DNA of 64,000 bases, taken from Candidatus Babeliales bacterium. Lineage in GTDB: Bacteria; Babelota; Babeliae; Babelales; Vermiphilaceae. The notes under the pieces are model-generated. The model saw only the letters and a program-made list of their open reading frames with translations. It did not search any database and was not told the DNA's origin. This document shows, one piece after another, positions 1,347 through 35,580 of this stretch. Position 1 is the stretch's first letter; the number at the start of each line of letters is the position of its first letter. A program made the translations under genes and the position numbers. Location of the stretch: assembly GCA_035944115.1 (NCBI GenBank), contig DASZBJ010000058.1, positions 62,001 to 126,000 of the forward strand. The letters are read 5' to 3'.

Positions 1347-1390
1347 ATATCGGCGGATGCATGTGATGATGCATTCGCCGATATATTTTT
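1347..1390. terminator. Hairpin terminator between convergent genes
   Basis: Arms at 1347-1362 and 1369-1384 pair over 16 bp with one G-U, followed by five T on the plus strand. On the minus strand the same hairpin lies just beyond the nagZ stop but is followed by only three T, so it is mainly a plus-strand terminator and may work both ways. Confidence 0.8.
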
Positions 1391-9590: not shown

Positions 9591-9623
9591 GGAAATCTCC
9601 TTATTTGTGCTCCATTCAATGCT

Positions 9624-9653
9624 ATTGTACACAATCCTCTTGTTGAAAATCAA
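9624..9653 (-). promoter_or_regulatory. Promoter for the WD40 gene
   Basis: On the minus strand TTGATT (9653-9648), 18 nt, TACAAT (9629-9624), about 34 bases upstream of the chosen ATG. This supports the start at 9590, since the longer frame would begin upstream of the promoter. Confidence 0.6.
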
Positions 9654-9815
9654 CAGATTGATTCTCGGTGAATAAGACGAATGACACGCATCGGCGGCCG
9701 TTTGGGATGAGCGGGTGGATAACAAATAAAGGGGATTTAGTCTAAGACGCTAATCATCAATGTATTTAAGCGGTATATTATGATGCATTGCAAAAAGATA
9801 AAGGATGTTGCCTTT

Positions 9816-14062: not shown

Positions 14063-14095
14063 ATATTGTGGGGGTTTAAAATTAAGGAGTTTTAT

Positions 14096-18302: not shown

Positions 18303-18758
18303 ATGTTGAATAAAATAAAAACAAAACTGTTTTTCCTGCTTGCTATCATTGGTGTAGGGTGTATCACCCCGTCACTTAATGCATGGCGAGGTCGTTGGGG
18401 AGGCGGCTATGGATGGGGTGGTCGTCGATGGGGAGTTGGTCTTGGATATCGACGTCCTTATGGATATTGGGGTGGTTATTACGGTCGCCCATATTATTAT
18501 GATGATTATGCACCTTCTCGTACCGTCGTTGTTGAAAAATCTACAACAACAAAAGAAACTACCGTGAAGAATGATACTAAGCAAACGTTGTATGTAGAAT
18601 CAAATCAGGAATCTCGTAATGTTGCGCCGGGTGAACGAATTGTTATTCGTGGTCGTCGGGTGGCAATTGAAGGTGATAATGGTACATTGCCCCAACGTGA
18701 TTATGGATCGTCTGTACAGGTAACTGAAGATACGCAAGGACGGTTGCAAGCGCGATAA
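18303..18758 (+). CDS. Secreted Gly/Tyr-rich protein with small C-terminal domain
   Basis: 151 residues. Signal peptide 1-27. Residues about 28-75 are Arg/Gly/Trp/Tyr-rich, ending in RPYYYDDYAP, which links it to the preceding small proteins. Residues about 78-151 are different: normal complexity, predicted beta-rich, with VKNDTKQTLYVES and VAPGERIVIRGRRVAIEG, which look like a small beta domain. ATG follows AAGGAGAGGTT. Last gene before the terminator at 18784. Function unknown; the beta domain could carry or anchor the low-complexity part. Confidence 0.82.
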   Translation: MLNKIKTKLFFLLAIIGVGCITPSLNAWRGRWGGGYGWGGRRWGVGLGYRRPYGYWGGYYGRPYYYDDYAPSRTVVVEKSTTTKETTVKNDTKQTLYVESNQESRNVAPGERIVIRGRRVAIEGDNGTLPQRDYGSSVQVTEDTQGRLQAR

Positions 18759-18921: not shown

Positions 18922-21900
18922 ATGCTATCAAAAAATAGTTTTATTAATTCATTATTATGTGCTTTTTTATTGAGCGGCTTTATGCCGCTCTTTGCAATGC
19001 AACGTATTCAAAAGATGGTGCAGGGTAAAACAAAAAACATTTTTGATGCGATTGAAAAAGGACGTATTGAATCGGTAAAATATTGGTTGGATCGGGGAGT
19101 AGATATTGAATCGGCGAACGCATTGGGACGTACGCCACTCATGAAAGCGGTTGAGTCTGTTGATGATGCTGGTTTAGCGATAGTGCAATTATTGCTGGAC
19201 CGGGGTGCAAATATTCAAGCGACTGATCGTGCTGGGTTGACGCCATTATTGTTAGCAGTCGAGTACAATAGAATTAAAGTAGTTAAAGAACTTCTTGCTC
19301 GGAATGCACGTCTCGATGTGGTGAGTAAGAGGGGCTTTACTCCTCTGAAAATTCTCCTTATAAAGAGTCATAAAGAAAGTATTTTGCCCTTACTGCAACT
19401 GCTCTTAGATCACGGCGCCAAGATCGATGAACGTTATGAATCAGGTGACACTCCATTATCACAGGCGATTAAAAATAATCGTTTTGATGCAGTAAAGTTT
19501 TTCTTGGATCGGCATGCTGACATTGAGGCGAGTAATCAAGGAGGCAAGACACCGCTGATGGAGGCTGTGCTATGGGGTAATACGGATATCGCAGAATTAC
19601 TGCTACAGCGGGGCGCAAATATTGAAGCGCAAGATATGGAAGGTAATACTCCACTACTCTTGGCAGCTAAGCAGGGGATCCTTAAAAGTCTGCAGTTACT
19701 TCTTGATAAAAAGGCAAATATCGAAGCTTTTAATAAACAAGGCGAGACTGCGCTTGCGAGTGCGGTAATGTGGGGCAGGCAGGAGTCGACTGCATTGTTA
19801 TTAGCACGCGGAGCAAACCCGAAGGTCAAAACCGCGGACGGAGACAGCTTGCTGATTTCAGCAATTCGAGGTGATAGTCCGGCAATAGCGAAACAGTTAT
19901 TAGAAGTTGGTGTGGATATTCAAGCGCAAGATGCAAAAGGTTTGACTGCTCTACAGCTTGCTATTTTAGGAAAATCTCAAAATATAATTCCCATGCTTCT
20001 TGAACGAGGAGCTTTTATCACCGAAAAGGACGTTCGAGATATACTTGATTTGGCTTTGTTTTATTCCAATGAGAATTTGTTGCATGCGCTGCAGATGAGG
20101 GGTTTTAAAGATGTTATCAATACCCCGGATGCTCGGGGCGAGTTATTGTTAACACAATCTATCATGAAGAATGACAGCAACCGTGTTGTATTTTTAATAA
20201 AACAGGGCGCTAATCCGTATGCACAAGATGCTACAGGATTTGATGCTTTTGATTATGTGCAAGCGCAAAACAGAAAAACAGAAATTTTTAAGTTTTTTAA
20301 AGAACAATTTCCCCAAGAGATGGTCCACAGAGAACAAGCTGACGGAAGTCGTGCACAGTTTGTATCGATCGAAGGGGGAGTAACACCAACAGAGATTCAT
20401 TATGCACAGTTTCGTGAAATCATAGAAAAAAAATATGAAAATGTTTTAGAGGATTTCGTGGTGCAGGAATGTATTGCAAAAGAACGCATTGCGTATGCGC
20501 AAGATAACTATGTTTTTTATCGTGCAGAGCCAGGAAAATATAGAATATATCAGTATGTGATACAAGAGTTTGATGATTTATTGAGATCATTTGGTAAAAA
20601 TAAAGATTCATTTGTTTTCACTCGTTTTTTTAAAGATGCGGCGCTAGAGCAAACGATCAATGAGTATATAGATACAAAGCCATGGGCGGCGCACAAAATA
20701 GATCCAACTAAAAATGTTCTTTTATCAACCAACATACCATTATTTGGCAATGTTGGAACTCCGGGTAGCTGCACGTGGGAATATTTTAAAAATAATCATG
20801 AAGCGGAAACGTGGATAGAATTGGATACACTTTTTAAGCGAGTATTTAATCTTTATGGCTTTGATACACGCTACATTGATCAAGAGCTTATGCCATTGCA
20901 AGAGGGAGGGCTTGAGCGTATGGCGTCGCTGCAGCAAATTATTATTCCGAAAAAAATTGTCGATGATGTGGCAATGTTAGCGGCGGTTGGTTATTGCGTG
21001 CCATGGCCTACCGTCGTTGATCCATCGTGCTGGGATCCAGAGGCTCTTAGTGCAGATCGATACGGAAATGGCACCCGAGGGCGCCACACGCGTATAGGAT
21101 CGATTATAGATAACTATAGAATAAAACAAATTCCAATAGATGATGCATATCAGGCGCGGATTTTTATGAATGCAGCCTATGGTTTAAATCCTGCCAGTGG
21201 CATTACCTTTAATGTATATACACGTTTGCCTAAATCAGATACGCGCATTGAAAAACTGAAAGCGCAGGTGCGTGCAATTACCGATAAGATGTTCGGCGAG
21301 TGGTTTGCCGATCAAGTGATGCGCGATGATCGGCCGCTTACTATGACGGGTGAAGAGTTACGAGCGGTGCTAAAAAATTATGGTAATGGTAATGTCGATA
21401 GGCAAAACGCTTTTTTTGATGCCTTCAGGAAGCGTAAAGAGCAATCGGGTGAGGATCGTAAATATGAAGCTGATATATCAGAACAAGAAAAGGGACAAGC
21501 GGTTGCGCAGGTGGCGGCGCGCATAGCACGGGAAGATATTCGATCAGGGGCGCGAGAGGCGCACGTGAAAGAAATAGAAAAAACGGCGACCGCAGCATCA
21601 TTAAAAGAATATGTGCCAGCGAGTATTTGGCAAGAATATGCACAGGGTCACGAGCTTGCGAAGGAGGGCATGGCAGTATTATATAGTAACGATTGTGTAA
21701 GGGATGCCTTTTATAATGCACGTATTGCTAAAAAAACATCGCGTGTTGCCCGTATCGCCACATATAATGTTCATCTTTGGAAAGATGCCATTGGAGTTGA
21801 TGCATACCAAGATATTCTTAATGTAATTGCCCAGATTCAAGCAGATATTCTTGTACTGCAAGAGGTATTAATGTTTGATGAAGCGCAAATAAAGAAAGAC

Positions 21901-22779
21901 CTTGCTGCGTTAGGGTATGTCTATCCACCAACATTTGCACCAATGGATCGGATTGGTGGGGTGCAATTTGGCAATATGATTGTTTCAAAATATCCGTTTG
22001 TTAAGCCGCCGTTTCGAACAACATATGCGGCTAATGCTCGAGATGATCAGCGCAACTTTATTAATGCACACATACAATTACCAAATGGTTCTATTATATC
22101 ACTGTATGGCACGCACTTAGATGTGTGGGATGAAACAGGCGCAGTGCGTGAAAAACAGGTGCGTGAATTACTTGAGCACGTGCAAAAAGATCCGCACGAA
22201 AATATAGTTCTTGCAGGTGACTGCAATGCAGTGCGGCGTTCTGATTACGAGTATGAAGTTGCGGGAAAATCGGTATGGGATATGCAGACGGAGCAATTTT
22301 TAAAGCGCGTTCCGGCGCGGTTAAGATTACAAGAAGTGCCGACGCAGGCTTTGCAGAATATAGAGCGCGCCGGCTTTAAAGATTGTTTTACCGCTGCGGG
22401 TATTGCTGGTCCAAAATATACCGTGTGGACGGGAACGATCGTTGATTTTATTTTCTGTGCACAAAAGTGGAATCTTCCTATTGATGGGTGCTACATATAT
22501 TTTACTGCCGCGAGTGATCACCTACCGGTTATCATGGATGTGCGCATTGTAAAAACGAAATTTGCAAAGGAATTAGAACGCCTTGCGCGGCAAAAAGCAG
22601 AGCAGGTTGCGCGCAGCGAAGAATTAGTTCATCGAGAAAAAAAGAGACAAATGCAAGAAGCAACTGAGGGCGAGCACGAAGAAAAGAAATGGCCACAGGA
22701 AGGGGGGAGAGAGCAACAAGAAACGCAACGTGCTATTGAGCAAGATATTGAATGGAATGCAGCACTTATGGGATTTTAA
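18922..22779 (+). CDS. Array protein A1: secreted ankyrin + MID + EEP (DNase I-like)
   Basis: 1285 residues, the longest array member. Signal peptide 1-26. About 12 ankyrin repeats span 38-445, ending in the array-wide cap GANPYAQDATGFDAFDY. MID domain about 488-800, with VFYRAEPGKYR (531-541), IPLFGN (605-610), GSCTW, SLQQIIIPKKIVD and GLNPASG. A charged helical linker with SIWQEY (901-906) leads to the EEP domain at about 942-1211. Its catalytic set is complete: N949 (TYNVH), E981 (LQEV), H1065 and D1067 (GTHLD), D1100 and N1102 (GDCN), D1175, and D1199-H1200 (SDHLP). The linker and tail after it are Glu/Lys/Gln-rich and end in EWNAALMGF, shared only with A10. EEP enzymes are nucleases or phosphoesterases; the substrate here is unknown. 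Confidence 0.92.
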   Translation: MLSKNSFINSLLCAFLLSGFMPLFAMQRIQKMVQGKTKNIFDAIEKGRIESVKYWLDRGVDIESANALGRTPLMKAVESVDDAGLAIVQLLLDRGANIQATDRAGLTPLLLAVEYNRIKVVKELLARNARLDVVSKRGFTPLKILLIKSHKESILPLLQLLLDHGAKIDERYESGDTPLSQAIKNNRFDAVKFFLDRHADIEASNQGGKTPLMEAVLWGNTDIAELLLQRGANIEAQDMEGNTPLLLAAKQGILKSLQLLLDKKANIEAFNKQGETALASAVMWGRQESTALLLARGANPKVKTADGDSLLISAIRGDSPAIAKQLLEVGVDIQAQDAKGLTALQLAILGKSQNIIPMLLERGAFITEKDVRDILDLALFYSNENLLHALQMRGFKDVINTPDARGELLLTQSIMKNDSNRVVFLIKQGANPYAQDATGFDAFDYVQAQNRKTEIFKFFKEQFPQEMVHREQADGSRAQFVSIEGGVTPTEIHYAQFREIIEKKYENVLEDFVVQECIAKERIAYAQDNYVFYRAEPGKYRIYQYVIQEFDDLLRSFGKNKDSFVFTRFFKDAALEQTINEYIDTKPWAAHKIDPTKNVLLSTNIPLFGNVGTPGSCTWEYFKNNHEAETWIELDTLFKRVFNLYGFDTRYIDQELMPLQEGGLERMASLQQIIIPKKIVDDVAMLAAVGYCVPWPTVVDPSCWDPEALSADRYGNGTRGRHTRIGSIIDNYRIKQIPIDDAYQARIFMNAAYGLNPASGITFNVYTRLPKSDTRIEKLKAQVRAITDKMFGEWFADQVMRDDRPLTMTGEELRAVLKNYGNGNVDRQNAFFDAFRKRKEQSGEDRKYEADISEQEKGQAVAQVAARIAREDIRSGAREAHVKEIEKTATAASLKEYVPASIWQEYAQGHELAKEGMAVLYSNDCVRDAFYNARIAKKTSRVARIATYNVHLWKDAIGVDAYQDILNVIAQIQADILVLQEVLMFDEAQIKKDLAALGYVYPPTFAPMDRIGGVQFGNMIVSKYPFVKPPFRTTYAANARDDQRNFINAHIQLPNGSIISLYGTHLDVWDETGAVREKQVRELLEHVQKDPHENIVLAGDCNAVRRSDYEYEVAGKSVWDMQTEQFLKRVPARLRLQEVPTQALQNIERAGFKDCFTAAGIAGPKYTVWTGTIVDFIFCAQKWNLPIDGCYIYFTAASDHLPVIMDVRIVKTKFAKELERLARQKAEQVARSEELVHREKKRQMQEATEGEHEEKKWPQEGGREQQETQRAIEQDIEWNAALMGF

Positions 22780-22845: not shown

Positions 22846-25800
22846 ATGTTGGGATCGATACGTATCAAGTTTTTTATAATGATGACAGTGTTATGTGGTG
22901 CGTCACCGCTGTTTGCGGCGTACATCAGCGGCCGAGGCAATACAGTCGATTTTCCTGATGCTATTGCACGGGAAAACGTAGGTGCTATTGCTCATTGGCT
23001 TGGGACGAGGCAATCGGTGAGTCGTAACACATTGACACGTGCATTGCTGGCTACCATTAAAGCAGCTGTTGTGCCAAATGAAGAAACGCGTTTAGAGGTT
23101 GTGAAGCGTTTACTTAATGAAGGCGCACCGATTGAAGAAGTTGATGAATTGGGGCGCACGCCGCTCATGCTTGCTATAAACGGAGGACATATTGACATCG
23201 CGAAGCTGTTACTAGAGCGGGGTGCAAGTATGAAGGCTCGCTCCAGTCAGGGTACCAGTATCTTTGAATTTGTTCCAAGGGGCAATGTGGCACTTATGCA
23301 ATTGTTGCTCGATAACAAATTGGCTATTGAAGCTCAAGATAAATGGGGTGGGACAATATTACAATGGGCGGTATCGGGTGATGACGTGCCAATGGTAGCC
23401 CTCTTGCTTGAGCGCGGGGCCAAGACAGAAGTAAGAAATGGATATAGTGGCGAAACCTTGTTGCTTTTGGCAGTGAGCTATCGTTTTTTAGATGTTGTTA
23501 GGTTATTGCTTCAAGCAAACGCGGACATTGAGGCGGAAGATAAGCGTGGAAATCGTGCATTAACGATTGCTTTTGAGAAACGGAATGCTGATGCTGATAT
23601 GGTATCGTTGTTGCTTGAATATGGGGCGTCTTGTACGCCGCAGCAAATAGCCGATTTTGTTGATTTTGCAGTATCAAAAGGACATGAAAAGATGCTGCAA
23701 TCTTTGGAATTGCGAAAGTTTCCCGTTGCAGACCTTATTAATAAGCCTACGCAAAACGGGGAAACTTTGTTGATGCAATATGTTATCCGTAATAATTATT
23801 CTGTAGTGGCACTTTTACTTAATCATGGTGCGAATCCGTTTGTGCGAGATGCAGCAGGATTTACGGTATTTGATTATGTGCGGGGGCAGCAAAAAAACAG
23901 TAAGATGTTTTTATTATTTATTGAGAAATTCCCTGAGCAAATGAGGGAGTCGAAGGGTTCTGTATCGGTCTCGCCCGACGATATCCCGTTGGGCAAAGGC
24001 AATACTCCGACTGAAGTTCATTACAGACGTTTCAGTGCACAGATAGAGCTGGAAAAAAATTACGGAAAGGTCCTTGAGAATCCTATAGTGCAAGAATGCA
24101 TTGCGAAAGAGCGCGTTGCGTATGAGCAAGATAAATATGTTTTTTACCATGGAGAACCGGGAAAATATAGAATATACGAGTATCTTTTGCAGGAGCTTGA
24201 TGATCTGGTGAGATCGTTTGGCAAGACTACGCGTGATTTTATTTTTACTCGTTTTTTCAAAGATGCAGCGCAGGAAATGACTATTAATGAATATATAGAT
24301 ACAAGACCGTGGCGCGCAAATGAAGATCCTACCAAAAATGTTTTATTGTCGGCTAGTATGGCGTTGTTTGGCAATATATATAATAAAACAAGTTGTCCGT
24401 GGTATTATTTTTCACAGAATGCATCGGCCACCAAGATTGACTTAAATCCACTGTTTGAATCGATTTTTGAGCGTTATGGATTTGATAAAGCCTATATCAA
24501 GAGTGAGTTATTGCCATTGCAACAGGGAGCGCTTGATTCTGCTGGATCACTGCTACAAATCATTGTGCCGAAAAATATTGTAGATAAGGTGGTGATGCTT
24601 GCGGATGTTGGTTATTGTGTGCCATGGCCAGATATGGTTGATCCATCTTGCTGGGATCCACAAGCAATCAGTGCAGATAGATCTAGAGTGATTAAGCAAG
24701 GAAGGCATACGTGCATTGCTTCGATTATTGATAAATATCGGACGGGTGCGATTCCTGTTGATGATACGTTTCAAATGCGGATTTTCATGAATGCGGCCTA
24801 TGGTTTAAACCCTAACAGTGGGATTACTTTTAATCTTTACAGTACGTTGCCAGAAGCGCGCTTGTTACGCTTAAAAGAGCAAATACATGCAATTGCAGAC
24901 AAGATGTTTGGTCAGTGGCTAGCAGATCTGGTGATGAGTGCAGATCGACCACTGATTATGTCAAGCGAGGAACTGCGTGCAATGCTTAAACATTATGGTA
25001 AGGGCGATGTAGCAAGACAAACAGCGTTCTTTGAAGCATTTAAGAAGAAGTTGCACGTGGAAAGTGAAGAGCGTAAGTACGAGGCTGATAAGAATCCAGT
25101 GCAGGAAATGGGACACGCAGTTGCCCAAGTAGCAGCACGAGTTGCTCACGAGGAAATTATCTCTGATGCAAGAAAAGGGGTAGGAGTAAGGTCTGATGCA
25201 GCACGACTAAAAGAGTATCGTCCCGCAACTATTTGGCAAGAATATGGAGATGGTAAAACAGTTACAAAACAAGATATGCGAGCATTATATTTTAAAGATT
25301 GTGCGCGAGATGCCATATATAATGCGCGTATTCCAGAAAAAACAGCGCGCGTTGTGCGGATTGCTACCTATAATGTTCATCTTTGGAAGGATCTGTCTGG
25401 GAATCATGCATACCAAGACATTCTTGAGGTGATTGCCCAGATTCAAGCAGATGTTCTTGTACTGCAAGAGGTGTTAATGTTTGATGAAGCGCAAATAAAG
25501 AAAGACCTTGCTGGGTTAGGATATGTCTATCCACCAACATTTGCGCCAATGGATCAGATTGGCGGGGTGCAATTTGGCACTATGATTGTTTCAAAATATC
25601 CATTTGTTCAACCGCCGTCGCGGATAGTATATGCGGCTAATAATCAAAGAGAAAAGCGCAATTTTATCAATGCCAAAATACGCGTGTCCGGTGATTCTAT
25701 AGTATCGGTGTATGGCACGCATTTGGATGTCCGGGATGAGACGGGTAAAACGCGTGAATTGCAGGTGCGTGAATTACTTGAGCATGTGCAAAAAGATGAA

Positions 25801-26268
25801 CATGACAATATAGTTCTTGCAGGTGACTGGAATGCAGTGCGGCGTTCTGATTACGAGTATGAAGTTGCGGGGAAATCGGTATGGGATATGCAGACGGAGC
25901 AATTTTTAAAACGAGTGGAAGGGCGGTTTGAGTTGCATGAAATACCAACCAATGCATTGCAGGATATAGAACGTAATAATTTTAAAGATTGTTTTACCGC
26001 TGCAGGTATTGCAGGTCCAAAATATACCGTATGGTCTGGCACGGAGGTGGATTTTATTTTCTGTGCGCAAAAATGGAATCTTTCTATTGATGGATGCTAT
26101 CTCTATTTTAGTGCAGCCAGTGACCACCTGCCGGTGATCATGGATGTGCGGATTGCAAAAACGAAATTCGCAAAAGAACGAGATCGTGCGCCGCAAGGAG
26201 AAAAGGGACAGGTCCAGCAAGCGGCTGAGCGTGAAGAAGAAGAAAAAAAATCGGCACAGCAAGAGTAA
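22846..26268 (+). CDS. Array protein A2: secreted ankyrin + MID + EEP
   Basis: 1140 residues. Signal peptide 1-24. Ankyrin region about 34-350, fewer units than A1. MID about 387-690; here the VFYRAE motif reads VFYHGE (432-437, His435), the second motif LSASMALFGN and the third SLLQIIVPKNIVD, which sets A2 and A3 apart as a subtype. EEP about 837-1104 with N843, E875, H959, D961, D994, N996 and D1093-H1094 intact. The Glu-rich tail is shorter than that of A1 and lacks the EWNAALMGF end. The 5' leader (GGTGCCAAAAGGATT through AAAGGGGTAAG) is nearly the same as that of A3, so the two arose by a duplication that included the leader. Confidence 0.92.
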   Translation: MLGSIRIKFFIMMTVLCGASPLFAAYISGRGNTVDFPDAIARENVGAIAHWLGTRQSVSRNTLTRALLATIKAAVVPNEETRLEVVKRLLNEGAPIEEVDELGRTPLMLAINGGHIDIAKLLLERGASMKARSSQGTSIFEFVPRGNVALMQLLLDNKLAIEAQDKWGGTILQWAVSGDDVPMVALLLERGAKTEVRNGYSGETLLLLAVSYRFLDVVRLLLQANADIEAEDKRGNRALTIAFEKRNADADMVSLLLEYGASCTPQQIADFVDFAVSKGHEKMLQSLELRKFPVADLINKPTQNGETLLMQYVIRNNYSVVALLLNHGANPFVRDAAGFTVFDYVRGQQKNSKMFLLFIEKFPEQMRESKGSVSVSPDDIPLGKGNTPTEVHYRRFSAQIELEKNYGKVLENPIVQECIAKERVAYEQDKYVFYHGEPGKYRIYEYLLQELDDLVRSFGKTTRDFIFTRFFKDAAQEMTINEYIDTRPWRANEDPTKNVLLSASMALFGNIYNKTSCPWYYFSQNASATKIDLNPLFESIFERYGFDKAYIKSELLPLQQGALDSAGSLLQIIVPKNIVDKVVMLADVGYCVPWPDMVDPSCWDPQAISADRSRVIKQGRHTCIASIIDKYRTGAIPVDDTFQMRIFMNAAYGLNPNSGITFNLYSTLPEARLLRLKEQIHAIADKMFGQWLADLVMSADRPLIMSSEELRAMLKHYGKGDVARQTAFFEAFKKKLHVESEERKYEADKNPVQEMGHAVAQVAARVAHEEIISDARKGVGVRSDAARLKEYRPATIWQEYGDGKTVTKQDMRALYFKDCARDAIYNARIPEKTARVVRIATYNVHLWKDLSGNHAYQDILEVIAQIQADVLVLQEVLMFDEAQIKKDLAGLGYVYPPTFAPMDQIGGVQFGTMIVSKYPFVQPPSRIVYAANNQREKRNFINAKIRVSGDSIVSVYGTHLDVRDETGKTRELQVRELLEHVQKDEHDNIVLAGDWNAVRRSDYEYEVAGKSVWDMQTEQFLKRVEGRFELHEIPTNALQDIERNNFKDCFTAAGIAGPKYTVWSGTEVDFIFCAQKWNLSIDGCYLYFSAASDHLPVIMDVRIAKTKFAKERDRAPQGEKGQVQQAAEREEEEKKSAQQE

Positions 26269-26330: not shown

Positions 26331-29300
26331 ATGTTGGGGATGCTACGTATTAAATCTTTTTTTATATCTATGATGTTGTGTAGTATGTCGCTCTTGTTTG
26401 GAGCACAGGCTGGTGACCGAGGCAATACACGCAATCTTTCTGATGCAGTTACGCGGGGCAATTTAGATGCTGTTGCCTATTGGGTTGATAATCCGCAACC
26501 TGTGGGTAGTAATGCATTGGCAAGCGCATTGTTATCTGCCGTTGGAGCATCTTTTATGGGGGACGAAGATACGCGTTTAAAAGTTGTGCAGCTTTTGCTT
26601 GATAGAGGTGCGCCCATTGAATCGTCTGATAATGGGGGACGCACGCCACTCATGCTTGCTGTAGCCGGAGGGCATCTTGATGCTGCGAAAATATTATTAG
26701 AACGGGGTGCAGATATTACTGTTCGATCTAGGCAGGGTGGTAATATTCTCTCATCTGTTCCAATGGGCAATGTGGCATTCATGCGATTCTTGCTTGATAA
26801 CAAGTTCGATATTGAAACTAAAGATCTACAAAATCGCACAATATTAATGCATGCAGTTAGATATAACGATGTTCCAATGGTAGCTTTTTTGTTGGAACGC
26901 CAAGCGGATACAGAGGTAAAAGGTAGTGATGGTGATAGTCCCTTGCTTATGGCAGTGCGTTTTGGCTATGTAGATATCATTAAGCTATTGCTTGATGCCA
27001 AAGCGAATATAGAAATAAAAGATAAGCATGGCAATACTCCCTTGCTTATGGCAGTGCAGTTTGGCTATGTAGATATCGTTAAGCTCTTACTTGATGCCAA
27101 AGCGAATATAGAAGCAAGGAATAAGTCTGGGGATACAGCTTTGATGATAGCTTTCGAGGAGGGAAAGTATGACGATGTTATATCGCTATTGCTGGCGGCA
27201 GGGGCGTCATTTACTGCGAAAGAAATAACAGATTTTATTTATCGTGCGGTATCGGCAACTGATGAGAGGTTTCTACGCTCTCTTGAATCGCGCGGGTTTA
27301 ATGTTACCGATGTTCTTAATAGAACTATGGATAATGGAGAAATGTTGCTCACGCAATACGTGATAGCTAATAATTGTCCGGTGGTAGCAATGTTACTTGC
27401 TCATGGTGCGGATCCCCTTGCGCGAAATGCCGCAGGACTCACCGCATTTGATTATGTGCGAGCTCAGAAAAAGAATAGTAAGATGTTGGCATTGTTTAAC
27501 GAAAAATTTCCTGAAGAATTGGTGACGTTAGAGCCTGCTCTATCTATATCATCAAAAGATCTTCCCTTCGGCTCTGGTAATACTCCAACAGAAATTCATT
27601 ATAAACATTTTAGTGTAGCGATAGAGCAAGCACAGAAATATGGGAAGGTGCTTGAGGATCCAATAGTGCAAGAATGTATTGCCAAAGAGCGCATAGCATA
27701 CGAAGAGGATAAGTATGTTTTTTATCATGCAGAACCGGGAAAATATCGAGCATATCAGTATCTTTTGCAGGAGCTTGATGATCTGGTGAAATCGTTTGGT
27801 AAGACTACTCGTGATTTTATTTTTACTCGTTTTATTGGGAATGCAGCGCGTGAAATGACTATTAATGATTACATAGATACAGAACCGTGGCGTGAGGAAG
27901 GCATACGTTCTACTAAAAATGTTTTATTATCGGCGAGTATGGCATTGTTTGGGAATGTATACAATGATACAAGTTGTGCATGGCATTTTTTTTTGCGAAA
28001 TACATCAATTACGAGTGTTAGTCTACAGGCGCTTTTTGAATCCCTTTTTGATCATTATGGATTTGATAAACAGTATATAGAAGAGTTGCGGCTATTACAG
28101 GAGGGAGCGTTTAACGCTTCAGCATCATTGCTACAAATTATTGTACCTAAAAACATTGTAGATAACGTTGTGATGCTTGCTGATGTTGGGTATTGTGTGC
28201 CATGGCCTGATATAGTAGATCCATCTTGCTGGGCTCCACAGGCAATCAGTGCAGACGGTAAGCAAGGAAGGCATACGTGCATTGCTTCGATTATCGATAA
28301 ATATAGGGCTGAAGCAATTCCTATAAATGATAAGTTTCAAGTGCGGATTTTCATGAATGCGGCCTATGGTTTAAATCCTAATAGCGGCATTACCTTTAAC
28401 CTGTACAGCCGTTTGCCAAAAGCATCAATTGTGCAATTAAAAGAGCGGATACATGCAATCGCAGATAAGATATTTGGTCAATGGTTGGCCGATCTGGTGA
28501 TGCGTGCAGATCGACCGTTGCTTATTTCAAGTGAGGAACTGCGTGCAATGCTTAAGCATTATGGTAAGGGTGATGTAGCAAGGCAGGCCGTGTTTTTTGA
28601 AGCATTTAAGAAGAAATTGGAAGTGTTGGGCGAAGAGCGCAAAGATAAGGCTGATAAGACTCCAGTGCAGGAAATGGGACATGCAGTTGCCCAAGTAGCA
28701 GCACGGGTTGCCCACGAGGAAATTATCTCTGATGCAAGAAAAGGGGTAGGAGTAAGATCTGATGCCGCGCAGCTGAAGGCGTATGTTCCTGCAACTATTT
28801 TGCAAGAATATCGAGCTGGGAAAACGCTTGCAATAGCAGAGATGCTTCCTCTTTATGTAAAAGATTGTGCGCGCGATACAGTATATAATGCGCGTATTGC
28901 TAAAAAAACAGCGCGCGTTGCGCGGATTGCCACCTATAATGTTCATCTTTGGAAAGATGCCATTGGAGCTGATGCATACCAAGACATTCTTCATGTAATT
29001 GCCCAGATTCAAGCAGATATTCTTGTGTTGCAGGAAGTATTGTTATTTGATGAAGCGCAGGTAAAGAAAGACCTTGCTGCGCTAGGGTATGTTTATCCAC
29101 CAATATTTGAGCCAATGGGTCGGATTGGCGGGGTGCAATTTGGCACTATGATTGTTTCAAAATATCCATTTATTCAACCGCCATTATCGATGGTTTACGC
29201 TGCCAATAGTTCTGAAGAGAAGCGTAATTTTATTAACGCTAAAATACGCTTGCCCAACGGGTTGGTTATATCTTTGTATGGTACCCATTTAGATCCCTGG

Positions 29301-29834
29301 GATGAAACAGGCGCAGTGCGTGAGAAGCAGGTACGTGAATTACTTGAATACGTGCAAAAAAATCCGGATGATAACGTAATTCTGGCAGGTGACTGGAATG
29401 CAGTGCGTCGTTCTGATTATGAGTATACAGTCGGCGGAAAATCGGTATGGGATATGCAGACGGAGCAATTTTTAAAACGCGTTCCGACGCGGTTAAGATT
29501 ACGAGAAATACCAACACAGGCATTGCAGGATATAGAGCGTGCCGGCTTTAAAGATTGTTTTACCGCTGCGGGTATTGCTGGTCCAAAATATACGGTGTGG
29601 ACGGGAACCGTGGTTGATTTTATTTTCTGTGCGCAAAAATGGAATCTTCCTATTGATGGATGCTATCTCTATTTTAGTGCAGTCAGTGACCACCTGCCGG
29701 TGATCATGGATGTGCGGATTACAAAAACTAAATTTGCAAAAGAACAAGATAGTGCGCCGCAAGCAAAAAAGGGACAGGTTCAGAAAGCAGCAGAGGGTGA
29801 TGAAGAAGAAAAGAAATGGGCGCAGGAAGAGTAA
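26331..29834 (+). CDS. Array protein A3: secreted ankyrin + MID + EEP
   Basis: 1167 residues, the closest relative of A2. Signal peptide 1-25. Ankyrin region about 34-375 contains two consecutive, almost identical 33-residue repeats encoded by a 99-base direct repeat (26940-27038 and 27039-27137). MID about 418-715 with VFYHAE (His466), LSASMALFGN and SLLQIIVPKNIVD. EEP about 865-1131 with N870, E902, GTHLD (984-988), GDWN and SDHLP intact. The EEP coding region shares long blocks of DNA identity with A1 and A2, more than the ankyrin regions do. Only 15 bases separate it from A4, and an AAGGAGG site overlapping its stop serves A4. Confidence 0.92.
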   Translation: MLGMLRIKSFFISMMLCSMSLLFGAQAGDRGNTRNLSDAVTRGNLDAVAYWVDNPQPVGSNALASALLSAVGASFMGDEDTRLKVVQLLLDRGAPIESSDNGGRTPLMLAVAGGHLDAAKILLERGADITVRSRQGGNILSSVPMGNVAFMRFLLDNKFDIETKDLQNRTILMHAVRYNDVPMVAFLLERQADTEVKGSDGDSPLLMAVRFGYVDIIKLLLDAKANIEIKDKHGNTPLLMAVQFGYVDIVKLLLDAKANIEARNKSGDTALMIAFEEGKYDDVISLLLAAGASFTAKEITDFIYRAVSATDERFLRSLESRGFNVTDVLNRTMDNGEMLLTQYVIANNCPVVAMLLAHGADPLARNAAGLTAFDYVRAQKKNSKMLALFNEKFPEELVTLEPALSISSKDLPFGSGNTPTEIHYKHFSVAIEQAQKYGKVLEDPIVQECIAKERIAYEEDKYVFYHAEPGKYRAYQYLLQELDDLVKSFGKTTRDFIFTRFIGNAAREMTINDYIDTEPWREEGIRSTKNVLLSASMALFGNVYNDTSCAWHFFLRNTSITSVSLQALFESLFDHYGFDKQYIEELRLLQEGAFNASASLLQIIVPKNIVDNVVMLADVGYCVPWPDIVDPSCWAPQAISADGKQGRHTCIASIIDKYRAEAIPINDKFQVRIFMNAAYGLNPNSGITFNLYSRLPKASIVQLKERIHAIADKIFGQWLADLVMRADRPLLISSEELRAMLKHYGKGDVARQAVFFEAFKKKLEVLGEERKDKADKTPVQEMGHAVAQVAARVAHEEIISDARKGVGVRSDAAQLKAYVPATILQEYRAGKTLAIAEMLPLYVKDCARDTVYNARIAKKTARVARIATYNVHLWKDAIGADAYQDILHVIAQIQADILVLQEVLLFDEAQVKKDLAALGYVYPPIFEPMGRIGGVQFGTMIVSKYPFIQPPLSMVYAANSSEEKRNFINAKIRLPNGLVISLYGTHLDPWDETGAVREKQVRELLEYVQKNPDDNVILAGDWNAVRRSDYEYTVGGKSVWDMQTEQFLKRVPTRLRLREIPTQALQDIERAGFKDCFTAAGIAGPKYTVWTGTVVDFIFCAQKWNLPIDGCYLYFSAVSDHLPVIMDVRITKTKFAKEQDSAPQAKKGQVQKAAEGDEEEKKWAQEE

Positions 29835-29849: not shown

Positions 29850-32800
29850 ATGAAGTTAAAAAAAATAATTATCCATGTTTTGATGTTTGTTATTTTGTGT
29901 GGCATGCGCCCTCTGATTGGTGCGCAATCTGATCCTGGCGGAACGCAAGATATTTTTCATGCCGTTCGCGAGGGAAGTCTTGATTCTGTTACGTATTGGT
30001 TGGATCGGGGAGTTGCTATTGATAGTACAGAGTACGGTGAGACACCACTGATTGCAGCAGTAAATAATGGCCTGTCAGAGATAGCGACAGAGTTGATTTT
30101 TAGGAGAGCCAATATCGAAGCAAGGGGCCATGGTTATACCGTATTGATGTTGGCTACTGCATCGAACCTTAAAGAAGTAGTGGGGTTGTTGCTTGATAAA
30201 GGAGCGCTTGTTGAAGCTCGGGATGATCAAGAAGATAGAACTGCATTAATGATGGCTGCCGAGTCGGGGTATAGTGCAATTGTGCAGTTGCTGCTTGATA
30301 GAGGGGCGGATATTAACGCTTGGGATCATCTGGGCAAAACTGCATTGATGCTGGCTTGCGCATCGCGTGAGTTGGCGATGGTGCAATTGTTGCTTGATAG
30401 AAAAGCGGTGATTGATGCTCGAGATCAAGAGGGTAAGACTCCATTGATGATTGCTGCAGAAAAAGGATGGATGGAGGGGGTGCAGCTATTTCTTGATCGA
30501 GGGATTACCATTGAATCTATGGGCAAAGCGAGCTTTATGATGTTGCTGATGCATGTGGTCAAAGTTGGTCCTTTAGCGTACGTAAGAGAGTTGCTCGATA
30601 AAGGCATGATTCTTGATTTTATAAATCAAGCTGATCTTGCATCATTATTAATACATGCGGTTCGATTTGGTTCTTTAGAGGTAGTAAGAGAGTTGCTGAG
30701 CGGGGCTAGTGTTGATGCAAAAGATAAAGATGGTAAGAGTGCTTTGAAAATAGCGGTGGAGAAAAATCGATTTGATATAGTCAGCGAGTTGCTTGCAAGA
30801 GGAGCGCGCATTGAAGATGCAGAAGCGAAAATTATTTTTGATAAAGCAGTCCAAGATTGCAACGCTTCATTAATGAGAGCCTTGCAATTGCAGGGGTTTG
30901 GAAGGTTGATTAATCAAGACGATCCCGGGAAAAAACCGTTATTAATAGCAAGCGTTAAAAGTAATAATTATAAAAGGGTTAAGTTTTTATTAGAATCTGG
31001 AGCAAACCCGCGCGTGAAAGACAAATTAGGATTTGATGCATTTGATTATCTATTTAAAAAGAAAAATAGTGAGCTGATTACTCTTTTTAATGATTTTTTC
31101 CCCGAAGATATGGGCAGGCGAGAGGGTGCTAAAGCGGAGTTCAGTGGTTATATACTGGGACAAGCGCTCTTAACGCCAACCGAACTGCATTATAAAAAAT
31201 TTGAGAAAGAAATAGAGCTTCGCTATGGTATGCAGCTTGATAATCCGATTGTGCGAGAGTGTATTGAAAAGGAGCGCATTGCATATCAGCAAGGTAACTA
31301 TGTCTTTTATCGAGCAGAGCCGGGTAAATATAGAGTATATCAATATTTTTTAAAAGAATTAGATGCGGTAGTGCGGTCATTTGGTAAAAAGAATTCATTT
31401 ATTTTTACCCGTTTTTTTAAAGATGCTGCGCAAGAAAGTACTATTAATGAGTATGTAGAAAAGCTGCAAAAGATGGATCAGGTTGGTGACATGCAGAATG
31501 TTCTACTGTCAGCCAATATACCGTTATTTGGTAATGTAAATAATCCTGGTAGTTGTACATGGGATTATTTTATAAAGAATAAAGAAGCGCTCAGGGGTGT
31601 CAACCTGTTCAAGATGTTTGAGCATATTTTTGATGTATATGGATTTGATCAGAAGTATATAGGTGCATTATTGAAGCTAAATGAAACCACACCGATAGAA
31701 AAGGGATCTTTGCAGCAGATCATAATTCCTAAAAATATTGTTGATGATGTCGCAATGTTAGCATCGGTTGGGTATGCTGCGCCGTGGCGAAGTGTTGTGG
31801 ATGAATCCTGCTGGAAGCAACAAGTAGATAAGATAGACAACAATAAGACAATAGGTCGTCATACGTGCATTGCTTCGATTATAGATAAGTATAGAAGCGG
31901 TGAGATTGCTATAGATGATGCATTTCAGGCTCGAATATTAATGAATGCGCGTTATGGCCTTAATCCCAATAGTGGTATTGAATTTAATATGTACGCGGAC
32001 ATTCCGCAGGAAGATCTTGCTGCTTTTGGGGAGCAGGTTAAAAAAGTGGTAGATGCGATATTTGGTACATGGCTTGCCCATCAGATAGGAAGAGAAGGTC
32101 AGCTGATGGGTGTGGAGCGTCAAGCATTTCGTTATATTTTAAAAAATTATGGAAAAGGTGATCCGGACAGACAAAAAGTGTTTTTTAATGCATTTAAAGC
32201 AGTTCAAGCGAATAAGAAACAGGAAGTTCCCGCAGAGCCGAAAAAAAATGAAGAAGAAGAAAAAGATGATGCAAGTCAGGTGCGGGAAATGGGGCAAGTG
32301 GTAGCCCATGTGGCGGCGCAGGTAGCACGAGAAGAAATAGACTCGGAAGTAAGAAAGGGAGTGCAGTATGAGGCTGCGCGCGAAGCATCGCTGTTAGAAG
32401 GAGACTCGCCGGCAACTATCTGGCAAGAGTATGCGGCTAGGGGGGATGTAACTCCTGCTCGTAAGGAGTCACTATTTATGGAAGATTGTGCTCGCAATGC
32501 GGTACGTAACATGCGTATTCCAAAGAAACATTCTAATGTTATTCGTATTGCAACCTATAACGTTCATTTTTGGACCAACCTTCTTAAGCGAGGAAGCTAT
32601 AATCAGATTCTGGAAACCATTAAAGCAATAAACGCAGATGTTCTACTACTACAAGAAGTTCGATTATTTGATGAGCAAAAAATTCATCGTGATTTCAGTA
32701 GTATGGATTATAAGTACCCGGCATTTATGCCTATGCAACTATTGGGGAATGATCCATTCGGTAATATGATTTTTTCAAAATATCCATTTGTGGGTGAGCC

Positions 32801-33446
32801 GTTTAAAAAGGTATATGCATCAAATAAAAATGTAGGGGGAGTGCGTAATTTCATTAATGCGATAATACAGCTGCCCGACGGCGATATGCTATCGGTATAT
32901 GATACGCATTTGGATGTGCACGACGCAACGGGCGTCACGCGCATGCAGCAAGTGCGAGAGCTTGTGGAGCATGCACAGCGGGATAGTAATAACCCGAATG
33001 TTTTATTGGCAGGGGATTGGAATGCGGTGAGAGAAAAAGATTATCAGTATGAAGTTGCGGGAAAGTCAGTTTGGCAGATGCAAACGGAACAGTTTTTAAA
33101 AAGGGCAGGAGCAAAATTGGGATTAAAGAAAATACCAACAGATGCGCTTGAATATGTTGAAGGTAATGGATTTAACGATTGCTTTACTTTGGCTAATGCT
33201 ACGGCTCCTTGGTACACCGTTTGGGCCGGAACAGTAGTTGACTTTATTTTTTGTGCCAAGACATGGAATCTGCCTATTGTAGGTAGTTATGTGTATTTTA
33301 GCGCAGCAAGTGATCATCTGCCGGTTATCATGGATGTACGCATGGCAAAAACAAAATCTGCAGAACGGGGAAAAGCCGCTCAGGAGGAAAGCGCTGCAGT
33401 GGCTGAGCGTAAAGACCAACAGAAGGAACAAGCGATAGAGGGATGA
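29850..33446 (+). CDS. Array protein A4: secreted ankyrin + MID + EEP (divergent EEP)
   Basis: 1198 residues. Signal peptide 1-25, then the DPGGT-DIF start motif shared with A5 and A9. Ankyrin repeats span about 34-400. MID about 442-755 with VFYRAEPGKYR, SANIPLFGN, GSCTW, SLQQIIIPKNIVD and GRHTCIASIIDKYR. Charged linker with PATIWQEY. EEP about 897-1165 is the most divergent of the four: GTHLD becomes DTHLD (His1020 and Asp1022 kept), while N904, E936, D1056, N1058 and D1155-H1156 remain. It is therefore probably still active. It is the last array member carrying EEP. The tail is short and Glu/Lys/Gln-rich. Confidence 0.92.
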   Translation: MKLKKIIIHVLMFVILCGMRPLIGAQSDPGGTQDIFHAVREGSLDSVTYWLDRGVAIDSTEYGETPLIAAVNNGLSEIATELIFRRANIEARGHGYTVLMLATASNLKEVVGLLLDKGALVEARDDQEDRTALMMAAESGYSAIVQLLLDRGADINAWDHLGKTALMLACASRELAMVQLLLDRKAVIDARDQEGKTPLMIAAEKGWMEGVQLFLDRGITIESMGKASFMMLLMHVVKVGPLAYVRELLDKGMILDFINQADLASLLIHAVRFGSLEVVRELLSGASVDAKDKDGKSALKIAVEKNRFDIVSELLARGARIEDAEAKIIFDKAVQDCNASLMRALQLQGFGRLINQDDPGKKPLLIASVKSNNYKRVKFLLESGANPRVKDKLGFDAFDYLFKKKNSELITLFNDFFPEDMGRREGAKAEFSGYILGQALLTPTELHYKKFEKEIELRYGMQLDNPIVRECIEKERIAYQQGNYVFYRAEPGKYRVYQYFLKELDAVVRSFGKKNSFIFTRFFKDAAQESTINEYVEKLQKMDQVGDMQNVLLSANIPLFGNVNNPGSCTWDYFIKNKEALRGVNLFKMFEHIFDVYGFDQKYIGALLKLNETTPIEKGSLQQIIIPKNIVDDVAMLASVGYAAPWRSVVDESCWKQQVDKIDNNKTIGRHTCIASIIDKYRSGEIAIDDAFQARILMNARYGLNPNSGIEFNMYADIPQEDLAAFGEQVKKVVDAIFGTWLAHQIGREGQLMGVERQAFRYILKNYGKGDPDRQKVFFNAFKAVQANKKQEVPAEPKKNEEEEKDDASQVREMGQVVAHVAAQVAREEIDSEVRKGVQYEAAREASLLEGDSPATIWQEYAARGDVTPARKESLFMEDCARNAVRNMRIPKKHSNVIRIATYNVHFWTNLLKRGSYNQILETIKAINADVLLLQEVRLFDEQKIHRDFSSMDYKYPAFMPMQLLGNDPFGNMIFSKYPFVGEPFKKVYASNKNVGGVRNFINAIIQLPDGDMLSVYDTHLDVHDATGVTRMQQVRELVEHAQRDSNNPNVLLAGDWNAVREKDYQYEVAGKSVWQMQTEQFLKRAGAKLGLKKIPTDALEYVEGNGFNDCFTLANATAPWYTVWAGTVVDFIFCAKTWNLPIVGSYVYFSAASDHLPVIMDVRMAKTKSAERGKAAQEESAAVAERKDQQKEQAIEG

Positions 33447-33492: not shown

Positions 33493-35580
33493 ATGAATTT
33501 TATAAATAGTGGTATCAAAATAGTAACGCTCATTTTTTTGTGCAGTGTAGTGCCAGTAGTTGCTGCGCAAAAAGATCCTGGCGGCACAAAAGATATTTTC
33601 GAAGCGGTTCGCAAAGGGCTTGTTGGCTCTGTCAATTATTGGCTGGATAATGGCGCCAACATTGAAGCGAGAAATCAATATGGCTTTACACCGTTAATGC
33701 TAGCAGTTGATCTTAATAAATTGGAAGCGATGCGTACTTTGCTTGATAGGGGAGCCAATATTGAAGCGACAGATAACCGCGGATTTACCGCTTTGACGAT
33801 TGCAGCTGTTCGTGCGGAATTGGACATGGTTCGCGAGTTGCTTGATAGAAAGGCAAATGTTGAGGTTGTAAATCAGCGTGGATTTACCATTTTGATGGAG
33901 GCTGTTGATGCGGATCATGTTGATGTAGCCGAAATGCTCCTTGAAAGGGGTGCTAATATAATGGCTATCAACAAAGAGGGGCAGACTGCGTTCACGATTG
34001 CGCTCAAAGCGCGTCAATTGGATATGATTGAGCTTTTGTTACAGCATGGTGCAAAGCTTGTTCCGTATAACATTGTGGAAAGACAAGATATACCCATAAT
34101 ATTATTTTTGATGCAAAAAGGATTTCACATTGATTTGAATGGGGTCTATACACAAGGGGAAACATTTCTAATACAGAGCGTTATGAAATCTGATTATAGA
34201 GTGATTGATTTTCTCATTGAGCAAGGAGCGGATCCATACATTAAGGATGCAGCGGGCTTGGATGCGTTTGACTATGCGTGGGCGGTGGGTGATAAAAAAG
34301 TGATTGATGCATTGCAAAAAACAAAACATGGTTCTTCATTACACGAGGCTATGCGTGATGAGGCGGTTGAGGTCTTTAATTCTGCGAAACTAATGACACA
34401 AACAGAGCTTCATTTTAATCAATTTAGAGATCAAATTGTGGCTTCGTATGGAGAGGTTATGCAAGATGCTCTTGTGCAAAAATGTATTGCAAAGGAACGT
34501 GCTGTAATTCAAGAAGGAAATTGCGTATTTTACAGAGCGGAGGCGGGAGCGTTTAGAATATATCAATATTTTTTGAAAGAATTATATCGATTATTTCGAC
34601 AGGCTTCCGACAAGGGTTCCTTTATTTTTACTCGTTTTTTCAAAGATGGTGCGCAGCAGCAGACGATTGACGAGTACATGAAGTCAAATCAAGATAGTGA
34701 TTACAGGGCGCGTAGTAAGGATTTATTATCATTAAATATTCCCTTGTTTGGTAATGTGACACGGCGGGGAAGTTGTACGTGGAATTATTTCGTAAAGAAT
34801 CAGCCTGCAGAGAATATTATTCTGGAACCATTTTTTAAAGCCATTTTTGATAGATACGGTTTCTCTCAAAAATATTTAAAGAGGTTGTTGCATCTGAACC
34901 AAAGTGCATCAGCGGGCTTATCATCATTGCAGCAGATTATTATTCCAAAAAATATTGTAGATAATGTAGTAATGCTTTCCAGTGGTTTTTATGTGCCGTT
35001 GGACGAAGAGCATTCAATGTCTGCTTTCTTGGATCAGTATAATCAAGGATCGCTTGTTATTGACGATAGCTATGAGGCTATGATGCTCATCAATGCGCTG
35101 TATGGGCTTAATCCTGAAAGTGGTATTCAATTTAATTTGTATAGCCGCTTACCAGAAAAAAAGCTTACTTCTTTAAAAGATAGTGTTAAAAAAATTACCG
35201 ATGAGATGTTTAGCGAGTGGCTCGCAGGGTATATAGCATGTGAGCATGTGCCACAGGGTGTAGAGAATGAGGAATTTTGCCATGCAGTCAAAACGTTTGG
35301 CAAGGGCGATGTTGATCGACAAGAAGCGTATTTTAGAGCGGTTAAAGAGCGCGGGCAGGAAGAAATAAAGGAAGATGAGGCAAGTCTTGCGCTTACTATT
35401 GAAGATAAGAAAAAAGCGACAGCTCAACAAGCGGGGCGGTTGGCGCGAGAGAGGCAAAAAAAGCCGGCGTATCTAGGACTGGTAGAGCAGGCAAGAGAGA
35501 GAAAAGAGCAGCACGAAAAAGAGCGGGCAGAGGTGCACAGGCAACGACTGGGAAAAGCAAAACTATTGGAGGGGAGATAG
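33493..35580 (+). CDS. Array protein A5: secreted ankyrin + MID, EEP lost
   Basis: 695 residues. Signal peptide 1-24, DPGGTKDIF start, five to six ankyrin repeats to about 275. MID about 300-590 of the second subtype: CVFYRAEAGAFR, LSLNIPLFGN, SLQQIIIPKNIVD, then GFYVPL and FLDQYNQGSL instead of the GYC-PWP/CW/GRHTC block. After MID it still has the linker opening GKGDVDRQEAYF and a degenerate ATAQQAGRLARER segment that matches VAQVAARVAREE of A1-A4. The EEP domain is absent; a Lys/Arg/Glu-rich tail follows. It therefore looks like an EEP-carrying protein that lost its last domain. Confidence 0.9.
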   Translation: MNFINSGIKIVTLIFLCSVVPVVAAQKDPGGTKDIFEAVRKGLVGSVNYWLDNGANIEARNQYGFTPLMLAVDLNKLEAMRTLLDRGANIEATDNRGFTALTIAAVRAELDMVRELLDRKANVEVVNQRGFTILMEAVDADHVDVAEMLLERGANIMAINKEGQTAFTIALKARQLDMIELLLQHGAKLVPYNIVERQDIPIILFLMQKGFHIDLNGVYTQGETFLIQSVMKSDYRVIDFLIEQGADPYIKDAAGLDAFDYAWAVGDKKVIDALQKTKHGSSLHEAMRDEAVEVFNSAKLMTQTELHFNQFRDQIVASYGEVMQDALVQKCIAKERAVIQEGNCVFYRAEAGAFRIYQYFLKELYRLFRQASDKGSFIFTRFFKDGAQQQTIDEYMKSNQDSDYRARSKDLLSLNIPLFGNVTRRGSCTWNYFVKNQPAENIILEPFFKAIFDRYGFSQKYLKRLLHLNQSASAGLSSLQQIIIPKNIVDNVVMLSSGFYVPLDEEHSMSAFLDQYNQGSLVIDDSYEAMMLINALYGLNPESGIQFNLYSRLPEKKLTSLKDSVKKITDEMFSEWLAGYIACEHVPQGVENEEFCHAVKTFGKGDVDRQEAYFRAVKERGQEEIKEDEASLALTIEDKKKATAQQAGRLARERQKKPAYLGLVEQARERKEQHEKERAEVHRQRLGKAKLLEGR

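What the first reader, a model, noticed from the sequence alone, without database searches (positions are those of the whole stretch)
20380..21325. Unrecognised 300-residue MID domain, possibly an ADP-ribosyltransferase-like fold
All ten proteins keep FY[RH]-E-G-[YF]R near the start, LFGN in the middle and LQ-I-[IV]PK-IVD about 70 residues later. The order (basic residue after an aromatic strand, small-residue motif, then Q-I-I-I-P) loosely recalls the three-motif layout of ADP-ribosyltransferases. The usual Glu is Gln here and the middle Ser is lost in A10, so this is a hypothesis only. Coordinates show A1.
Basis: inference. Interest (0 to 1): 0.8.

Follow-up and report, generated by a model that had tools for sequence, protein, structure and literature searches.

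The report
New secreted domain of protist parasites
The window encodes ten secreted ankyrin-repeat proteins of a bacterium that lives inside protists, all sharing a roughly 300-residue domain that matches no known family or solved structure; it is spread across that bacterial phylum, two giant-virus proteins share its predicted fold, and the guess that it is an ADP-ribosyltransferase is not supported, though not ruled out.

Summary
Ten tandem secreted ankyrin (ANK) proteins (18922-47042) share a ~310-residue domain (MID) with the reported motifs. MID has no Pfam, NCBIfam or PDB sequence match. It is a phylum-wide family: 28 copies in this genome, and hits in 38 of 101 genomes of the phylum Babelota/Dependentiae (parasites of protists). 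It occurs alone after a signal peptide, before ANK repeats, or after them.

Two confident AlphaFold2 models (pLDDT 92.7 and 87.7) match no solved structure and no ART in Foldseek. Two giant-virus proteins match with probability 1.0.

The ART reading is not supported. R534 is a derived state (His in 62 of 86 relatives); the position called the catalytic Glu never carries Glu in 88 sequences; the near-invariant residues are E521, R568, N604 and N610. It is not excluded: CopC, a proven ankyrin/ART-like enzyme, also had no clear structural relative, and a neighbouring family, X, shows R-G...S-x-S...E motifs.

Gene order gives a new clue. The EEP hydrolase fused to MID in A1-A4 sits beside MID as a separate gene in three other genera, and secreted NUDIX genes sit beside MID in two. 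I infer an effector domain, probably an enzyme working with phosphoester hydrolases.

The parts
20362..21348 (+). MID domain of A1 (residues 481-809), the finding itself
   Evidence: profile search; AF2 model pLDDT 92.7
23983..24957 (+). MID domain of A2
27561..28523 (+). MID domain of A3
31152..32117 (+). MID domain of A4
34375..35259 (+). MID domain of A5
37001..38026 (+). MID domain of A6
39425..40432 (+). MID domain of A7
41415..42422 (+). MID domain of A8
43872..44807 (+). MID domain of A9
45963..46904 (+). MID domain of A10
20482..20484 (+). E521: near-invariant Glu (84/86) on the helix before strand 1, 13 residues before R534
20521..20523 (+).
20623..20625 (+). R568: near-invariant Arg (79/86)
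20725..20751 (+). S602-N604-LFGN610: Ser variable, N604 (85/88) and N610 (83/88) near-invariant
20935..20937 (+).
21184..21204 (+).
19039..20286 (+). ankyrin repeats of A1 (limits approximate); all ten proteins have N-terminal ankyrin repeats
   Evidence: Pfam Ank families
21652..22581 (+). C-terminal endonuclease/exonuclease/phosphatase (EEP) domain of A1
   Evidence: PF03372 E 1.9e-14; subfamily profile
25258..26190 (+). EEP domain of A2
28824..29756 (+). EEP domain of A3
32445..33383 (+). EEP domain of A4

Best explanation
MID is a new domain family of secreted host-directed effectors of Babelota (Dependentiae). Shown: one homologous family, spread through the phylum, evolving under purifying selection, with a confident predicted fold that has no detectable solved relative but is shared with two giant-virus proteins; found alone behind a hydrophobic leader or joined to ankyrin repeats on either side; linked by fusion and gene order to one EEP hydrolase subfamily and to secreted NUDIX hydrolases. 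Inferred: the Sec signal exports the protein, the ankyrin repeats dock it on a host protein, and MID is the working part, most likely an enzyme or ligand-binding pocket built from E521, R568, N604 and N610 with R/H534 and Q672 nearby, acting on a nucleotide-like or other phosphorylated host substrate in the same pathway as the EEP and NUDIX partners. The exact reaction is not established.
For: No family or PDB sequence match. 28 copies in this genome, 38 of 101 genomes of the phylum. Stand-alone leader+MID proteins of 358-490 aa in many genomes mean MID itself is the functional unit; a hydrophobic N-terminal segment in 81 of 91 proteins (a heuristic). AF2 pLDDT 92.7 / pTM 0.92 and 87.7 / 0.88; no PDB match; two giant-virus proteins at prob 1.00, E 1.1e-9 and 1.2e-6. 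The strictest columns are mostly polar: E, N, N, R. EEP fused in A1-A4 and in two other proteins of this genome; EEP as a neighbour gene in G051, G097, G094; NUDIX neighbours in G045, G048, G081; 5 of 14 EEP and 5 of 17 NUDIX genes lie within 2 kb of MID against 0.14 and 0.11 expected. Ankyrin effectors and signal peptides are typical of the phylum (PMC6561590, PMC4378268).
Against: No biochemical evidence of any kind. Coordinates of the models were not available, so clustering of the conserved residues in a pocket was not tested. The neighbour statistics are biased: the EEP and NUDIX profiles were partly built from MID neighbours, and genomes of one genus are not independent. Secreted genes cluster in these genomes anyway, so linkage need not mean a shared pathway. 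The residue at 534 varies H/R/T/N, which is odd for a catalytic base.
Confidence: 0.45

Rival explanations
1. MID is a strongly diverged, non-canonical or inactive ADP-ribosyltransferase-like domain: strand 1 carries His/Arg, strand 2 the Ser, and the QxIP strand stands where the catalytic Glu would be. It would bind NAD+ and either use another acidic residue (E521) or be a pseudo-enzyme.
For: Strand order helix-strand1(FY[RH][AG])-helix-strand2(LLSxN)-helices-strand3(QIIIP) in both models resembles the ART layout; the commoner FYH[AG]Q looks like the YHGT of H-type ARTs and is the only stretch hhalign pairs with E. coli KptA (but probability 0.2%). Family X, which replaces MID next to EEP in G060 and G009, has E-x12-RG[TS], SISxGNSLFAG and GExFHSR; MID has the same E-x12-[RH] spacing and LLSxNxSLFGN....GECT. 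The MID/X profile score of 22.8 beats 150 of 150 column shuffles. NUDIX and EEP partners would fit nucleotide chemistry. CopC shows that a real ankyrin+ART enzyme can be almost invisible to structure searches (PMC9239266).
Against: No ART among the listed Foldseek hits of two confident models; Glu never occurs at the expected place (0 of 88); Arg is derived; the triad positions are less conserved than E521, N604, N610 and R568; MID vs X hhalign probability is only 1-2%, P 0.036, and block shuffles reach the score in 7 of 60.
Confidence: 0.2
2. MID is a non-catalytic binding or scaffold domain, for example a host-protein adaptor, and EEP or ankyrin parts do the work.
For: Variation at position 534 (H/R/T/N) and loss of Gln672 in about a fifth of the family; conserved Asn and Pro residues can be structural; many effector domains are adaptors.
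Against: Stand-alone leader+MID proteins are common, and the strictest positions are charged or amide side chains kept at 13-25% identity.
Confidence: 0.27
3. MID is related to 2-oxoglutarate/Fe(II) dioxygenases: many of the weak Foldseek hits of model 1 are such enzymes.
For: About 20 of the first 39 weak PDB hits of model 1 are FTO, AlkB, BcmB, T7H and similar.
Against: All have prob <=0.05 and TM about 0.1; the pattern almost vanishes with the second model; no conserved HxD...H metal triad.
Confidence: 0.03
4. The finding is an alignment accident among recent duplicates with no function of its own.
For: The ten genes are tandem duplicates in one clade.
Against: Relatives in 38 genomes, many at 13-28% identity, keep the same motifs; dN/dS 0.12-0.19.
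Confidence: 0.02

Closest known systems
Two uncharacterised giant-virus proteins: A0A481Z173 (Mimivirus LCMiAC02) and A0A1V0SG32 (Hokovirus HKV1)
   Same: Same predicted fold by Foldseek, probability 1.00; viruses of protists, as Babelota are parasites of protists
   Different: 10-16% identity; TM 0.37-0.56; their sequences and functions could not be inspected here
Ankyrin-repeat effectors of Dependentiae (Chromulinavorax destructans 98 copies, Babela massiliensis 126 copies)
   Same: Secreted ankyrin-repeat proteins, in part clustered, in the same phylum (PMC6561590, PMC4378268)
   Different: A shared domain like MID was not found described in the passages of those papers that I searched; here it is defined, and it also occurs without ankyrin repeats
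OspC/CopC ADP-riboxanases (ART-like domain + ankyrin repeats)
   Same: Ankyrin repeats joined to an alpha/beta domain with a His in the proposed active site; poor similarity to known structures (PMC9239266)
   Different: CopC needs Glu325; MID has no Glu at the expected place; no CopC or OspC match among the listed Foldseek hits
ADP-ribosyltransferase superfamily (R-S-E and H-Y-E classes)
   Same: Loose order of three motifs; [RH][AG] at the end of strand 1
   Different: No fold match, no catalytic Glu, other residues are the conserved ones
Endonuclease/exonuclease/phosphatase family (PF03372)
   Same: The C-terminal domain of A1-A4 is a member, with the N, QE, GDxNA and SDH residues kept
   Different: It is a separate domain, not MID

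Membership tests
ADP-ribosyltransferase superfamily | ART fold (split beta-sheet with NAD+ cleft) | tested here: inconclusive
   Two confident models, no ART among the listed Foldseek PDB hits; but a genuine ART-like enzyme (CopC) had Dali Z<4 to all structures (PMC9239266), and no coordinates were available to inspect topology
ADP-ribosyltransferase superfamily | Arg (R-S-E) or His (H-Y-E) at the end of strand 1 | tested here: inconclusive
   H 62, R 12, T 9, N 3 of 86; R only in one clade
ADP-ribosyltransferase superfamily | Ser (STS) or Tyr in the middle motif | tested here: not met
   Ser 56, Phe 14, Ala 13 of 88
ADP-ribosyltransferase superfamily | Catalytic Glu ([QE]xE) on the third strand | tested here: not met
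   Glu in 0 of 88 at the position and at -2
ADP-ribosyltransferase superfamily | NAD+ binding or transferase activity | not testable with these tools
   needs a bench assay
ADP-ribosyltransferase superfamily | Sequence-profile match to an ART family or structure | tested here: not met
   Pfam and PDB searches; KptA hhalign probability 0.2%
OspC/CopC ADP-riboxanases | Structural match to CopC/OspC and a catalytic Glu equivalent to E325 | tested here: not met
   No such hit among the listed Foldseek results; no conserved Glu C-terminal to the core
2OG/Fe(II) dioxygenases | HxD...H metal triad | tested here: not met
Secreted ankyrin-repeat effectors of Dependentiae | N-terminal signal peptide plus ankyrin repeats | tested here: met
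   Ankyrin families in all ten; hydrophobic leaders seen in the translations, no SignalP run
Exo_endo_phos (PF03372), C-terminal part of A1-A4 | Family profile above cut-off and catalytic residues kept | tested here: met
   53-59 bits against cut-off 24.5; NVH, QEV, GD[WC]NA, SDH conserved

The most novel reading that the evidence does not exclude
MID is the founding member of a new enzyme fold used by intracellular Babelota bacteria and by giant viruses to alter the same kind of protist host target, working together with EEP and NUDIX hydrolases; family X would be a sister family.
Probability: 0.25. Interest if true: 0.82.

Novelty: new variant of a known kind. Interest (0 to 1): 0.55.

Why it matters
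Babelota are widespread intracellular parasites of protists with huge, functionally unread sets of secreted proteins. A phylum-wide effector domain with a confident fold, a short list of near-invariant residues, natural fusions to a hydrolase and a fold shared with giant viruses gives a concrete handle on how these bacteria act on their hosts, and perhaps on a shared bacterial/viral strategy against protists. It also shows that the apparent ADP-ribosyltransferase motifs in one genome's paralogues are mostly lineage-specific.

Tried and rejected
ART by sequence: Pfam, NCBIfam, PDB sequences and KptA hhalign, all negative. ART by fold: two models, none listed. 2OG oxygenase hint from model 1: not reproduced. 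Phage and plasmid tblastn: no match. Searching other bacterial phyla was not possible (no genome handle), so restriction to Babelota is not shown. KptA as an in-phylum ART yardstick is absent.

Full report
WHAT IS THERE. The window lies in a 1.52 Mb genome (G000) of the phylum Babelota/Dependentiae: relatives of MID in two named records are 'Candidatus Dependentiae ... Vermiphilaceae' and 'Candidatus Babeliales', and contig lengths suggest that the first record is genome G079, which the tool places in the same family as G000. Ten ORFs in a row on the + strand (18922-47042) encode proteins with an N-terminal hydrophobic leader, ankyrin repeats, and then the domain in question; the first four continue into an EEP (endonuclease/exonuclease/phosphatase, PF03372) domain. 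A fourth motif, LNPxSGI, was not named.

THE FAMILY. Iterative profile searches find 28 copies in this genome and hits in 34 of 101 genomes of the phylum with the first profile and 38 of 101 with the wider one. I assembled 91 proteins. Three layouts occur: ankyrin-MID(-EEP), MID-ankyrin, and leader+MID alone in proteins of 358-490 aa. A tree of 87 domains puts the 15 ankyrin-MID copies and the 13 MID-ankyrin copies of this genome in two clades of their own, both with support 1.0. Window paralogues evolve with dN/dS 0.12-0.19. No Pfam, NCBIfam or PDB sequence match is credible. Phage and plasmid collections are negative; other bacterial phyla could not be searched, and the single genome-contig scan used one narrow pattern, so restriction to Babelota is not shown.

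WHAT IS CONSERVED. Over 88 sequences the strictest columns are Glu (84/86; E521 in A1), Asn (85/88; N604), Pro (81/85; P757), Asn (83/88; N610) and Arg (79/86; R568). Arg at 534 occurs only inside the ankyrin-MID clade of this genome (12 of 15), so it is a derived state and the common residue is His.

STRUCTURE. AF2 on A1 MID with 87 aligned sequences gives mean pLDDT 92.7 and pTM 0.92; on a compact distant member (L076) pLDDT 87.7 and pTM 0.88. Foldseek against 350,542 PDB chains finds nothing at E<=0.001 for either, and none of the 50 listed hits of either search (of 70 and 89 with E<=10) is an ART. Against viral predicted structures, two uncharacterised giant-virus proteins match with probability 1.00 (Mimivirus LCMiAC02 A0A481Z173, E 1.1e-9; Hokovirus A0A1V0SG32, E 1.2e-6; TM 0.37-0.56). 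Many weak PDB hits of model 1 are 2OG/Fe(II) oxygenases, but at probability <=0.05 and TM about 0.1, and hardly any with model 2, so I reject that lead.

THE ART QUESTION. Against: no fold match, no profile match, no Glu, derived Arg. For: the strand order is compatible, and the common FYH[AG]Q resembles the strand-1 motif of H-type ARTs (the only stretch hhalign pairs with E. coli KptA, probability 0.2%). A negative structure search is weak evidence here: CopC, an ankyrin+ART-like ADP-riboxanase, had only Dali Z<4 to known structures (PMC9239266). A further clue is family X, secreted proteins in 21 of 101 genomes, with E-x12-RG[TS], SISxGNSLFAG...ACA..YL and GExFHSR. X is fused to the same EEP subfamily in G060 and lies in an array of five next to it in G009. 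MID shares the E-x12-[RH] spacing and the SxNxSLFGN....GECT..YF stretch. The MID/X profile score (22.8) exceeds 150 of 150 column shuffles (maximum 20.6) but is reached by 7 of 60 block shuffles, and hhalign gives probability 1-2%, P 0.036. This is suggestive of a motif-level relation, not proof of homology, and X itself is not shown to be an ART. I put an ART-like nature at about 20%.

CONTEXT AND MECHANISM. Fused to MID in A1-A4 and in two other proteins of this genome is one EEP subfamily. In G051 (EEP-MID-MID-EEP), G097 and G094 (two loci; in one, MID and EEP proteins share the same leader) it is a separate secreted gene beside MID. In G045, G048 and G081 (two loci) secreted NUDIX genes sit beside MID. 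Counts within 2 kb are 5 of 14 EEP (0.14 expected) and 5 of 17 NUDIX (0.11 expected). This is biased because some of these neighbours seeded the profiles, and related genomes are not independent; the two G094 loci and G081:C14 did not seed them. EEP and NUDIX enzymes cleave phosphoester and pyrophosphate bonds (established family knowledge), so the most likely setting is nucleotide-like or phosphorylated substrates. My best explanation is a secreted effector: leader for export, ankyrin repeats for docking, MID as the working part, EEP/NUDIX in the same pathway. Export and linkage are supported by sequence; catalysis and substrate are inference.

NOVELTY. Secreted ankyrin proteins are a known hallmark of the phylum and have been likened to giant viruses (PMC6561590, PMC4378268). 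A shared domain of this kind was not found described in the passages I searched in those papers. It is best called a new variant of a known kind (ankyrin effectors) with a domain that is new by every search made here.

Noticed in passing
L064:507-1965, L065:896-1675, L058:778-1437, L059:774-1457: Secreted NUDIX hydrolase genes directly beside MID genes in three genomes (G045, G048, G081).
   Followed up: yes
L128:2638-5562 (residues 357-555) and 20 further genomes: Family X: secreted, no Pfam match, motifs LLFRG[TS] / SISxGNSLFAG / GExFHSR; shares the EEP partner of MID and may be a better ADP-ribosyltransferase candidate than MID.
   Followed up: partly
L056:3-896: EEP protein beside MID with lost catalytic motifs (GAQVE, AATLNA, SNH), next to an intact copy at L056:3683-4693.
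   Followed up: no
L130:1388-3469 and L130:3459-5072: Adjacent MID and EEP proteins of G094 share a similar N-terminal leader region, as if domains were swapped behind one export leader.
   Followed up: no
L062:360-1211: Protein with a leader and a C-terminal RING finger (PF13639) next to a MID pair in G005.
   Followed up: no
window 1389-2657, 4294-5988, 7158-9725: Glycosyl hydrolase families 3 and 1 and an 855-residue WD40 protein upstream of the array.
   Followed up: no
window 14066-15535 and 18303-18758: Two ORFs just upstream of the array without a convincing Pfam family.
   Followed up: no
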